This document shows positions 61,847 through 64,000 of a stretch of 64,000 nt of DNA, in pieces. The position numbers and the translations under genes are program-made. Positions within the stretch are counted from its first letter, which is position 1. Each line of letters starts with the position of its first letter. The stretch is from Pseudosulfitobacter pseudonitzschiae. Its GTDB lineage: Bacteria > Pseudomonadota > Alphaproteobacteria > Rhodobacterales > Rhodobacteraceae. The notes beneath the pieces are model-generated. The model saw only the letters and a program-made list of their open reading frames with translations. It searched no databases and had not been told where the DNA came from. Location: contig NZ_CP022415.1 in assembly GCF_002222635.1 (NCBI RefSeq), positions 2,232,001 to 2,296,000 on the forward strand, given 5' to 3'.

Positions 61847-62186
61847 GAAAGTCTCCTTTCGCGCACCATCGCGCCGCGCTTGGGTCGCAGCAACGTCTAA
61901 CATGCGGTTTCGCGGATAATGTAGCTCTACCAGGCTGCAATTGCGACCAATCGCTTGGAAACAGGGCAAAACCTTGCGTTACGCACGTGGGCGTTATTGC
62001 GATCTGCCCAACAAAAGGTACGCTCTATCGGCAATTTCACAAAAAGAGGTGAGGCGCCCAATTGCAGGCATCTTTACGGTTTTAAAGTCATTGGCGGCCG
62101 AAGTTGTGAATTGGCCCCCCGGATACCGCGATGGTTTGGGCCAAGAAAACAATCCCGGGTTGGACGATTTGAAACCGGAATTGCGA
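61847..62186. other. Intergenic gap before the mobile region
   Basis: These 340 bases hold no supported gene. An open frame continues leftward from the PAS fragment, but it reads as non-coding. The stretch contains the minus-strand promoter of the DUF2126 operon near its left edge, and presumably the lost control region of the PAS gene. Confidence 0.5.
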
Positions 62187-62387
62187 ATGTCCAAAGCCGA
62201 CCATATCATTGCCCGCGTCTCGCCCGACCGCAAGATCATGTCGATCAACGAACGGTTTTGCGGCTTGCTGGGCGTTGAAGCGTCCGGATTTATCGGCACG
62301 GAGTATGAACAGATCGTGCGCAAACAAGACCACAACAGCGACGAATTCGCCAAGATATGGCACGCAGCAAAGCCGTGCAACCGCAGT
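62187..62387 (+). pseudogene. Truncated PAS-domain protein gene
   Basis: About 67 residues from an ATG at 62187 look like the start of a PAS domain (IIARVSPDRKIMSINERFCG, EASGFIGTEYEQI), similar to the PAS domains of bacterial chemoreceptors, where EFAKIWH matches the downstream EYxxFW stretch. The reading then enters the inverted repeat of an IS481-like remnant and is lost. It is therefore a 5' fragment of a sensor gene whose 3' part was removed by the insertion. The N-terminal start is uncertain and an upstream in-frame codon is possible. Confidence 0.45.
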
Positions 62388-63190
62388 AAGGTTGATGCGC
62401 TCAAACGGTTTTATGTGCTCAGTTACTGCGTTTGGTGCATCGGATTGATGATGAATCTGTCTGACGCAGAAGTCCAGATCTTGCAGATATTTTCGTAGCG
62501 CGTGAGCGCCGTTGAGGGACTTGAGCCGAAGTGCAAGGTTGTAAGCGGCCATGGAGTCGGCGAGGTACGTGCGCAGTTGATCATGGCTGTCGTAATGGCA
62601 TCGCTTTCCTGTCGCCTCCTTGATCATGCGGTTCATTCGTTTGGCCTGACCATTGGACCACGGAAGGTTTGGCTTGGTCAGTCGATGCTCGATCCCATTT
62701 GCCTCGCAGATCATGTCGAACCGCATCTGCCGCGAAAATGTTGTGCTCGGATTATGTGACCGCTTGGCGGACTGGATGCCGCTCACAATCAGGATCGTAT
62801 GGATACGGAACGGACGGTTGGAGAGCATAGGGACAATCATCCAGCGGCAGCAGTGTGTGCCGCCGGAATGCGGCGATCATTGTCTCGTCCGCTTCGGTCA
62901 GAACGGTCGAACGCGACTCCCTCGGCCCGGTCTTCAAATCCGCGACCGTCGCACGTTTGCGCCATTTCGCGACGGTCTTGGGATTGATACCCAGTTCCTT
63001 GCTCAACTGCGCGAGCGAAGATTTCCCCTTTCGGACCATTACTGCCCAATGCACTGCCGGACAGTGGAACCCTGTATTGCGGCTCTGACGGCGGGCATGG
63101 CCGTGGCGCTTTCGTGACGAACTTGTCCCGCTATGCTTCCTTCCATTCCTGCGAAAGGATCGCCCCATCAAACCGTGGGATCAAACATCT
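62388..63190 (-). mobile_element. Decayed IS481-family insertion sequence
   Basis: Imperfect terminal inverted repeats share ACGGTTT-ATG: ACGGTTTTATG at 62405-62415, and CATCAAACCGT at 63166-63176 whose reverse complement is ACGGTTTGATG. Between them, on the minus strand, lie broken pieces of an IS481-type DDE transposase. The outer ends are approximate. No intact transposase remains, so it cannot move by itself. Confidence 0.7.
62423..63135 (-). pseudogene. IS481-family transposase, internally deleted and frameshifted
   Basis: Pieces in order: an N-terminal QVRHESAT-type start; the helix-turn-helix part LAQLSKELGINPKTVAKWRK; RHTLLPLDDCPYALQPSVP; then a junction near 62820. There the frame changes and the protein resumes at FRIHTIL, followed by MRFDMICEANGIEHRLTKPN and WSNGQAKRMNRMIKEATGKR. 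About a hundred residues of the catalytic core, including the first Asp, are deleted, and the usual DNG reads VSG. Near 62500 a further frameshift leads to the true family C-terminus (YENICKIWTS) ending in TAA at 62423-62425. Confidence 0.75.
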
Positions 63191-63217
63191 TATGTGTCCC
63201 GTCTCTGCTATATTCGG

Positions 63218-63360
63218 CCCGTCGTCGGCCCCGGCCAGGGCCAACGACGGGGTAGGATACAGCGCTGAACACCTTGTGGCCTGACCACGTGCGCTAGCCG
63301 GCTGATCCTACCTCTCCTCACCGTCTCGAACAATTGACGGCGGCCCGTTCGTGGGACCGC
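63218..63360 (+). ncRNA. Candidate bridge (seek) RNA of the IS110 element
   Basis: The leader of the IS110 transposase folds by eye into several stems. Hairpin 1 is CCCGTCGT/ACGACGGG (63218-63225 with 63244-63251) with an inner GGCCC/GGGCC. A long stem-loop is closed by GTAGGAT/ATCCTAC (63252-63258 with 63305-63311) with inner AGCGC/GCGCT and GTGG/CCAC. Further stems are CCGTC/GACGG (63321-63325 with 63336-63340) and GCGGCCC/GGGACCGC (63340-63360). IS110-group elements carry their guide RNA in this position. A TATATT at 63209-63214 could be the -10 of a promoter completed on circularisation. Loop assignment to target and donor is not made. Confidence 0.5.
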
Positions 63361-63384
63361 GAAGCATAAGGAAGAGAGAGTGAC

Positions 63385-64000
63385 ATGATAGCAGCAATTA
63401 ATGTGATCGGGATAGATGTGTCCCGCGACTGGTTGGACGGATTTCGTCTTCCTGGCCTGCAGAGGTTTCGCTTGGCCAATTCACCAGAAGGGCATGAAGA
63501 ACTGATTTCGATGATCTGTCAGATGTCCGAACTCGTTCAGGTCGGGTTTGAGGCAACCGGCGGACAGGAATGGGCATTGTGGGCCGCGCTTGTCGAGGCG
63601 GGGGACGAGGCGCGGCAACTTCCTCCCGCCCAGATCAAGGCTTTTGCCATGTCGCGGGGTACACGGGCCAAGACGGACCGGATCGATGCAGAACTCATCG
63701 CCCATTTCATGATGTTCCGGCCCGAGGCCGGGCGGACGTTGCCAAGTGATAACTTGCGTGTTCTCAGGGCCCTGACGACGCGACGCGCTCAGATCGTCGA
63801 AATGCGCAAGCGGCTGACGGCGCAGATCTCGGCACGCAAGAAACAAGGCATCCCCGCAGACATCGAGGATCTCGATGCCGAATTGAAAGCCATGCTGGAT
63901 GCTCAAATCAGCGACCTCGAGCAGCGCATCAACCGCGCCATTTCAAGCGAAGAAACGTCCGCCACCAAAGCTCACCTTCTTCGTTCCATTCCCGGCATCG
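63385..64000 (+). CDS. IS110-family transposase (DEDD recombinase), cut by window end
   Basis: The visible 205 residues are the N-terminal RuvC-like DEDD domain: D11 (VIGIDVSRDW), E56 (VGFEATGGQEWALW), D98 and D101 (RAKTDRIDAELIAHF). A coiled helical segment follows (LKAMLDAQISDLEQRINRAI) and the start of the C-terminal serine domain (LLRSIPGI). The catalytic Ser domain lies beyond base 64000. The ATG at 63385 has GGAAGAGAG upstream. All four acidic residues are present and the frame is open, so this copy may be active, unlike the adjacent IS481 remnant. Confidence 0.92.
   Translation, partial: MIAAINVIGIDVSRDWLDGFRLPGLQRFRLANSPEGHEELISMICQMSELVQVGFEATGGQEWALWAALVEAGDEARQLPPAQIKAFAMSRGTRAKTDRIDAELIAHFMMFRPEAGRTLPSDNLRVLRALTTRRAQIVEMRKRLTAQISARKKQGIPADIEDLDAELKAMLDAQISDLEQRINRAISSEETSATKAHLLRSIPGI

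What the first reader, a model, noticed from the sequence alone, without database searches (positions are those of the whole stretch)
63190..63384. Structured non-coding leader of an IS110 element, a likely bridge RNA
The 195 bases before an intact-looking IS110 DEDD transposase contain at least four perfect or near-perfect hairpins in tandem, including a CCCGTCGT stem and a nested stem closed by GTAGGAT/ATCCTAC. IS110-group elements are known to encode a guide (bridge or seek) RNA here that pairs with donor and target DNA through two loops. A TATATT lies just upstream of the first stem, suiting a promoter completed at the joined circle ends. The two guide loops of this copy could define its insertion preference.
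Basis: partly seen in the sequence, partly recalled or inferred. Interest (0 to 1): 0.72.

Follow-up and report, generated by a model that had tools for sequence, protein, structure and literature searches.

The report
IS110 bridge RNA targeting IS481 ends
The stretch before this transposase gene encodes a guide RNA of a known kind (an IS110 bridge RNA), and comparison with relatives indicates that it steers the mobile element to the ends of another mobile element, IS481; the transposase gene beside it is itself cut short.

Summary
The 195-nt leader folds better than shuffles (z -2.5), and 31 homologous leaders keep one structure with compensatory change (18 of 37 pairs changed on both sides; 0 of 500 shuffles reach the covariation score). 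It is an IS110-type bridge RNA: 5' hairpin, target-binding loop, donor-binding loop. In this copy the donor guides match the element's own ends (ACAATTG; CATAAG/CTTATG); across relatives guides and ends change together. The element runs from core CT 63189-63190 to core CT 64357-64358, past the window. Its left flank is an IS481 end; left guide CTGAACACCT reads IS481 ends, right guide CTAG the CTAG beside them. Joined ends would make a TTGCTT-17-TATATT promoter, a layout seen in 44 of 44 elements checked. Corrections: the transposase is not intact (in-frame stop at codon 263), and this copy pairs only moderately with its present flank (4 Watson-Crick + 2 G-U of 7). Bridge RNAs are established and end-targeting members of the family have precedents, so this is a new member of a known kind. 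Its modest novelty is a guide that reads an 'IS481 end + CTAG' junction, with left-guide switching in sister subfamilies.

The parts
63189..63190 (+). left copy of the core dinucleotide CT; left boundary of the IS110 element (the right copy is at 64357-64358, outside the window)
   Evidence: Conserved sequence starts here in 51 of 58 aligned leaders while flanks vary; right end, coordinates
63191..63196 (+). left end of the element next to the core (right donor): TATGTG
   Evidence: Matches RDG as reverse complement; changes with it in relatives: TATG/TATG 24, TCTG/TCTG 20, TGTG/TGTG 1, other 6 of 51 rows
63209..63214 (+). -10 box TATATT of a promoter whose -35 (TTGCTT, spacing 17) arises only when the element ends are joined in a circle
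   Evidence: 44 of 44 elements: 3 of 6 consensus bases at the joined -35, 0 of 6 in the inserted state; -10 mean 4.25 of 6
63219..63250 (+). 5' stem-loop of the bridge RNA
   Evidence: 12 pairs, 8 with changes on both sides, 95.1% of cells paired
63252..63311 (+). target-binding loop: stem 63252-63263 / 63301-63311 (GTAGGAT/ATCCTAC), apical hairpin GTGG/CCAC 63276-63288
   Evidence: Stem: 11 pairs, 9 with changes on both sides, 97.4% of cells paired
63265..63274 (+). left target guide, CTGAACACCT, ending in the core CT
   Evidence: Own guide versus left flank beats permuted guides over 35 unique pairs, 0 of 10000
63294..63297 (+). right target guide, CTAG (core CT + AG)
   Evidence: Right flank starts AG in 40, AA in 3, AT in 1 of 44 rows
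63324..63377 (+). donor-binding loop: stem TCTC/GAGA (63324-63327 / 63374-63377), apical hairpin 63340-63360
   Evidence: Stem 100% and hairpin 98.4% of cells paired, but nearly invariant (1 of 10 pairs with changes on both sides), so little covariation
63330..63336 (+). left donor guide ACAATTG, same as the element's right end ACAATTG|CT (64350-64356)
   Evidence: ACAATTG/ACAATTG 3, ACAGTTG/ACAGTTG 35, other 6 of 44 rows; once in the leader
63365..63370 (+). right donor guide CATAAG, reverse complement of CTTATG at the left end
   Evidence: Once in the leader; covaries with the left end
63385..64000 (+). IS110 DEDD transposase, start; continues past the window and stops in frame at 64171-64173 (codon 263), so C-terminally truncated
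   Evidence: PF01548 E 1.7e-21, PF02371 to 69/87; NF033542 166.3 bits, cut-off 140; stop
62752..63188 (-). 5' part of a decayed IS481-type element whose end GTGGGATCAAACAT is the left target of the IS110 element
   Evidence: NF033577 41.3 bits, below the 224 cut-off for a full protein; tblastn with an IS481 transposase from L076, E 2.8e-36; other copies

Best explanation
63189-63384 is the left end of an IS110-group insertion sequence and encodes its bridge RNA. When the element is excised as a circle, its joined ends create a sigma-70-like promoter (TTGCTT-17-TATATT) that would transcribe the leader. The RNA has a 5' hairpin and two guide loops. The donor loop pairs with the element's own ends around core CT (ACAATTG on one side, CTTATG on the other). 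The target loop pairs with a site shaped CTGAACAC-CT-AG, the end of an IS481-type element followed by CTAG. The recombinase then joins donor and target at CT. In this copy the element sits against an IS481 end. Shown here by sequence: element ends, conserved structure, co-changing donor guides and ends, association of target guides and targets. Inferred: transcription, complex formation, recombination. The truncated recombinase suggests that this copy no longer moves unless an enzyme is supplied in trans.
For: Structure and covariation. Donor guide/end co-change and target guide/target association; the guide is the best or joint-best place for the flank in 27 of 35 leaders. Element ends from relatives. 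Target-like sites in the own genome: 5 GGGATCAAACAYCT and 2 GGACTRAACAYCT, reversed-pattern controls 0, each at an IS481-type end. A sister element in G001 has 13 copies at one motif, and 33 uninterrupted sites GGTCCWGASCCTAG remain, control 0. Circle promoter. A covariance model finds leaders it was not built on: G032 (45% protein identity) at 93 bits and a second G000 copy at 167 bits. Homology of an intact relative to IS621 and ISCro4 structures, E about 6e-30. Architecture as published for IS621: passages.
Against: This copy's left flank matches its guide imperfectly (4 WC + 2 GU + 1 mismatch of 7), and two other places in its leader match that flank slightly better (7 against 6 of 10). 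Within subfamily A alone the association is not significant (765 of 10000). The exact site CTGAACACCTAG is absent from the genome. Four of 28 subfamily A rows lack the target motif, and five have the motif without further IS481 similarity. Rows are not independent: 13 are near-identical G001 copies. No Rfam family reached its threshold in 62000-64000. None of 25 relatives matched across the joined flanks of the window locus. Transcription untested.
Confidence: 0.93

Rival explanations
1. The leader is a structured 5' UTR that regulates transposase translation and does not guide DNA recognition.
For: It lies directly upstream of the start codon and is strongly structured.
Against: The loop segments match the element's ends and change with them (ACAGTTG/ACAATTG, CTTATG/CTTCTG/CTTGTG) and match target flanks by subfamily (0 of 10000 permutations). 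A leader for translation control alone has no reason to do so.
Confidence: 0.03
2. The hairpins are a terminator or fossil inverted repeats with no present RNA function.
For: The 5' hairpin is strong and GC-rich; this copy's transposase is truncated.
Against: The architecture is kept across 31 leaders with compensatory change. Loss of function may be true of this one copy but not of the family.
Confidence: 0.02
3. The element is an IS110-group member with a bridge RNA, but the IS481 neighbourhood of this copy is incidental and its real preference is another CTAG-containing repeat.
For: Imperfect pairing of this copy with its flank; of 28 subfamily A rows, 4 lack the motif and 5 have it without IS481 similarity beyond it; sister subfamilies use other repeats.
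Against: 17 of 28 subfamily A rows (some of them near-duplicates) show IS481-end similarity beyond the target itself above a 99% shuffle level; an IS481 transposase match lies upstream in 10 of 28, two of these weak; L066 and L125 match their flanks at 7 of 7 positions.
Confidence: 0.12

Closest known systems
IS621 bridge RNA and recombinase (IS110 group; PMC11208160, PMC11208158)
   Same: Leader upstream of the transposase; left end 191 bp there, 196 here; 5' stem-loop plus two stem-loops with internal loops; core CT; target loop before donor loop; promoter formed at joined ends (passages of PMC11208160). Recombinase homologous, E 6.5e-30 for an intact relative.
   Different: Target CTGAACAC-CT-AG at IS481 ends instead of the IS621 target; transposase of this copy truncated at codon 263.
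IS1111-type elements IS4321/IS5075, which target Tn21-family terminal inverted repeats, and IS1383, which targets the inverted repeats of IS1384
   Same: Elements of this wider family that use another mobile element's ends as their site (known here only from reference titles).
   Different: Those papers were not read. IS1111 elements usually have the guide downstream of the gene and sub-terminal inverted repeats (passages); here the guide is upstream.
ISEc11/ISXne4 natural target switching (PMC11187229)
   Same: Related elements whose guide segments differ in step with their targets (passages).
   Different: Here the left target guide differs between subfamilies while the right guide stays CTAG or close to it.
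ISCro4 recombinase (PDB 9t56)
   Same: Best sequence match among solved structures to an intact relative, E 5.9e-30.
   Different: Target and RNA of ISCro4 were not compared here.

Membership tests
IS110 family (DEDD transposase) | DEDD RuvC-like domain and C-terminal Transposase_20 domain with the conserved SG | tested here: met
   PF01548 77.1 bits, PF02371 56.6 bits; NF033542 'IS110 family RNA-guided transposase' 166.3 bits over cut-off 140; DSG present in the translation
IS110 family (DEDD transposase) | Full-length transposase | tested here: not met
   In-frame stop at codon 263; PF02371 match ends at 69 of 87. Intact copies exist among relatives
IS110 group rather than IS1111 group | Long non-coding region upstream of the transposase gene, short one downstream | tested here: met
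   196 bases from core to start codon; the next stop in the frame, where the family frame ends, begins at 64342 and the right core is at 64357-64358
[quoted passage not shown]
   the donor-loop stem is nearly invariant, so supported by pairing, hardly by covariation
IS110 bridge RNA | Donor guides match both element ends around the core | tested here: met
   ACAATTG and CATAAG, once each in the leader; co-change across 44 and 51 rows
IS110 bridge RNA | Target guides match both sides of the insertion site | tested here: met
   Across relatives; for this copy alone only partly (4 WC + 2 GU of 7 on the left, AG on the right); not significant within subfamily A alone
IS110 bridge RNA | Promoter formed across the joined ends | tested here: met
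   TTGCTT-17-TATATT; 44 of 44 elements; sequence only
IS110 bridge RNA | Transcript made and bound by the recombinase | not testable with these tools
   Needs small-RNA sequencing and binding assays
IS1111 group | Long non-coding region downstream of the transposase | tested here: not met
   About a dozen bases between the end of the family reading frame and the right core
IS1111 group | Sub-terminal inverted repeats of 7-17 bp | not tested
   No search for them was made
Rfam RNA families | A match at gathering score | tested here: not met
   6 matches up to E 5 in 62000-64000, all below their gathering scores

The most novel reading that the evidence does not exclude
A lineage of IS110 elements lives as a commensal on IS481: the left half-guide reads the outer bases of IS481 ends and the right half-guide reads the CTAG that flanks IS481, so the RNA recognises the junction that IS481 makes and the insertion leaves the IS481 end whole. 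Sister subfamilies keep the CTAG half and swap the left half to reach other CTAG-ending repeats, which would be natural retargeting by one half-guide.
Probability: 0.55. Interest if true: 0.55.

Novelty: new member of a known kind. Interest (0 to 1): 0.4.

Why it matters
It gives a complete, comparatively supported bridge RNA (ends, core, four guides, promoter, target) in an alphaproteobacterial IS110 lineage, with a natural series of related guides and sites in which one half of the target guide changes and the other stays. That series can test how many mismatches and G-U pairs real insertions tolerate, and how an RNA-guided element comes to depend on another mobile element. For this window it is one inactive-looking copy of an established type.

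Tried and rejected
Rfam gave no family. The idea that the conserved flank bases belong to the element was rejected: near-identical G001 copies have differing left flanks, and 33 uninterrupted copies of the 14-base site exist there, with 0 for the reversed pattern. The idea that every subfamily targets IS ends was dropped: of 23 uninterrupted G001 sites seen in 20 fetched stretches, 14 share further upstream DNA (attaatg or atcaatg before the motif) and look like a dispersed repeat; no search for IS ends was made there, and by eye one of them (L152) has IS481-like sequence after CTAG. No empty site was found for the window locus: of 26 genomes searched, the own one apart, 13 of 25 gave only short one-sided matches and none spanned the joined flanks. 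An excess of G-U pairs was seen overall (0.41 of non-Watson-Crick positions against 0.32 permuted, 0 of 5000) but not within subfamily A (0.35 against 0.39), so I do not claim it. A pattern search for the promoter in the inserted locus gave 0 (0.09 expected), as expected for a promoter made only on joining.

Papers. Searches listed no paper whose title or shown abstract start reports IS110 elements directed to IS481 ends or to CTAG. This covers only the held open-access library; most listed papers, including the 10 that hold both IS110 and IS481, were not opened. Of PMC11208160 and PMC11187229 I saw passages; of PMC11208158 a term search returned no passage; the others only as search listings.

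Rows dropped: 7 of 58 aligned leaders (L049, L059, L060, L077, L078, L079, L095) have a truncated, rearranged or misaligned left end and were left out. Other loci were excluded by name or by short upstream DNA before the alignment, among them the distant families L020-L027 and L118-L123. Alignment A1 used 31 of the 33 leaders kept (L074 and L088 dropped); L017, L098, L124 and L134 had been set aside. L088 and L134, with boundaries shifted by one base, were kept in the target test and count against it. Rows are not independent: 13 of the 51 are near-identical G001 copies (collapsed to 5 unique pairs in the 35).

Full report
What was checked. The window is G000:C1:2232001-2296000. The leader 63190-63384 lies directly before an IS110 transposase start at 63385. 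It folds at -81.1 kcal/mol, z -2.50 against dinucleotide shuffles, 3 of 200 shuffles as good. Rfam has nothing for it. The window ends inside the gene, so I fetched the locus beyond it (L008).

The element. Fifty-nine related loci were found among genome contigs, and matches in 32 of 101 relatives and, at E 1e-40, in 17 of 394 family members. Of 58 aligned leaders, 51 share a sharp left start, mostly CTTATG or CTTCTG (CTTGTG, CTTACG and CTGTTG once each), while the DNA before it varies. Of 43 downstream sequences printed, 39 share an end of the kind ACACAGTTGCT or ACACAATTGCT, after which the DNA varies; L050, L051, L059 and L101 do not. With core CT on both sides, this copy runs from 63189-63190 to 64357-64358. 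The transposase matches PF01548 and PF02371 and NCBIfam's 'IS110 family RNA-guided transposase' above its cut-off, and an intact relative (L047) matches the solved IS621 and ISCro4 recombinases at E about 6e-30. This copy has an in-frame stop at 64171-64173, codon 263 of about 320. Of the 43 sequences, this copy and L066 have a stop at that position, 37 read on, and 4 (L048, L051, L072, L101) are not in register for the comparison.

The RNA. On 31 leaders the structure named has 96.8% of 1141 cells paired and 18 of 37 pairs with changes on both sides (shuffles 12.7, 1 of 500). Its covariation score is 0.351, against 0.177 (sd 0.008) shuffled, 0 of 500, and at most 0.099 slid; RNAalifold on its own found 20 of 43 pairs with such changes. 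The 5' hairpin and the target-loop stem carry 17 of the 18; the donor-loop stems are almost invariant, so they are supported by pairing, hardly by covariation. A covariance model built on these leaders was run on 61 genomes with the tool's stricter filters and gave 22 matches at E 0.01 or better in 3 genomes: 3 in G000, 18 in G001, 1 in G032. Twenty are full length (3, 16, 1); two are reverse-strand matches of the 5' hairpin alone. The window and G001 elements were in the model and match by construction; the G032 leader (93.1 bits) and a second G000 leader (C2:112621, 166.7 bits) were not. Three of the 20 are relics: G001:C1:1082411 and G001:C1:856218 had no transposase match in the 2.5-3 kb fetched, and G000:C2:418655 has only a distant one (24% identity) starting about 390 bases downstream. 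In 16 further loci, 12 gave full-length matches and L026, L027, L078 and L121 gave none; some of the 16 cover the same place, and L121 covers that of L021, which did match.

Guides. The donor-loop segment ACAATTG (63330-63336) equals the element's right end, and CATAAG (63365-63370) is the reverse complement of the left end CTTATG. Each occurs once in the leader, and both together occur in 0.0001 of letter-shuffled leaders. They change with the ends: of 44 rows with a right end, 35 have ACAGTTG on both sides, 3 ACAATTG on both and 6 differ; of 51 rows, 24 have TATG on both, 20 TCTG, 1 TGTG, and 6 differ. Thirteen rows are near-identical G001 copies. The target-loop segment CTGAACACCT (63265-63274) ends in the core. 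Over 35 unique flank/guide pairs the own guide matches 5.23 of 8 positions, against 3.38 (sd 0.30) for permuted guides, 0 of 10000; the guide is the best or joint-best ten-base place for the flank in 27 of 35 leaders. Over the seven positions next to the core there are 169 Watson-Crick matches, against 107.9 permuted (largest 144 of 5000); 24 of 35 pairs have five or more, 12 of 35 pair fully if G-U is allowed. Most of this signal lies between subfamilies: inside A (21 pairs) 765 of 10000 permutations do as well, in the rest (14 pairs, called B here, L017 included) 1 of 10000. The right guide CTAG fits right flanks beginning AG in 40 of 44 rows (AA 3, AT 1). More distant leaders show the same by eye: flank GAAACGCTTG with loop GAAACGCTTG (L118), flank ACCCACCCTTG with loop GACCCACCCTTG (L121). 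These were read, not scored.

The target of this copy. The left flank is the end of a decayed IS481-type element. In the own genome GGGATCAAACAYCT occurs 5 times and GGACTRAACAYCT twice, reversed-pattern controls 0. These are the window copy, the two ends each of the short copies L002 and L003, and single ends at L004 and L007. L002 has CTAG on both sides; L003 has TTAG and CTAG. The exact sequence CTGAACACCTAG does not occur in the genome. An IS481 transposase match lies within the 1.6 kb upstream in 10 of 28 subfamily A rows (L056 and L064 only short matches; 5 of the 28 have under 400 bases of upstream DNA). Seventeen of 28 show IS481-end similarity inward of the target above a 99% shuffle level, some of them near-duplicates; L054 ties, L053 is not assessable, five (L046, L047, L066, L067, L137) have the motif only, and L045, L050, L057 and L068 lack it. 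This copy pairs with its flank by 4 Watson-Crick and 2 G-U pairs and 1 mismatch over seven positions; two ten-base stretches elsewhere in its leader match the flank 7 of 10, against 6 at the guide. So for this copy alone the target loop would not have been convincing; the relatives make the case.

Sister targets. In G001 thirteen copies sit at CCAGA[C/G]C before the core CT (10 of 13 GGTCCAGA) with AG beyond, and 33 uninterrupted GGTCCWGASCCTAG sites remain, control 0. Of 23 such sites seen in 20 fetched stretches, 14 share further upstream DNA and look like a dispersed repeat. L128 instead abuts an IS5-family transposase (NF033580; end seen). The left guide therefore differs between subfamilies while the right guide stays CTAG or nearly so.

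Promoter. Joining the ends gives TTGCTT-17-TATATT here. In 44 of 44 elements the joined -35 has 3 of 6 consensus bases (TTG) and the inserted state 0 of 6; the -10 averages 4.25 of 6. This matches the published account that joined IS110 ends rebuild a promoter for the RNA (passage).

Verdict. An IS110-group bridge RNA, well supported by comparison, in a copy whose recombinase is truncated. The kind is known (passages of PMC11208160 and PMC11187229). Targeting of other elements' ends by this wider family has precedents (reference titles, papers not read). The searches listed under Tried and rejected showed no report of IS481 ends as an IS110 target. Interest is moderate, mainly for the half-guide switching and the IS481 dependence.

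Noticed in passing
L060 2340-2420 (junction near 2380): An IS481 end (…GATCCACCAGATACCGGTACTGAACACCT) is joined straight to the leader just after the left target guide: the crossover lies in the ten bases that target and guide DNA share, as if target and guide-coding DNA had recombined.
   Followed up: partly
L008 2172-2174 (window numbering 64171-64173) and L066: The window copy and L066 (85% protein identity in the best segment) both have a transposase stop at the same codon; L066 also matches over a shortened stretch.
   Followed up: partly
G000:C2:112621-112810 (L170): A second, subfamily B-like bridge RNA leader in the same genome, with target GGGTCCTGACC; only a 5' fragment of a transposase was matched in the 3 kb fetched.
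   Followed up: partly
L106, L147, L148 (G001): The sequence GTCACATACCCATAAAAGGGATTCAC follows directly after the CTAG or GCTAG of the subfamily B target; in L106 a DDE-type (IS5-like, by eye) frame follows, so another element may use the same CTAG.
   Followed up: no
G001, 33 sites: A dispersed sequence GGTCC(A/T)GA(C/G)CCTAG; 14 of 23 sites viewed share attaatg/atcaatg and further DNA upstream; function unknown to me. L152 has IS481-like sequence directly after CTAG.
   Followed up: partly
window 61941-62498 (+) and about 62400-63188: A reading frame (PAS-like by eye) runs into the decayed IS481-type element, whose far end is degenerate.
   Followed up: no
G000: At least 26 IS110-type matches to this transposase in one genome (26 of 48 candidates were scored), most of them distant.
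   Followed up: no
L049, L059: Leaders truncated on the left within a few bases of the CTAG of the right target guide, a sequence that also flanks IS481 copies (by eye).
   Followed up: no
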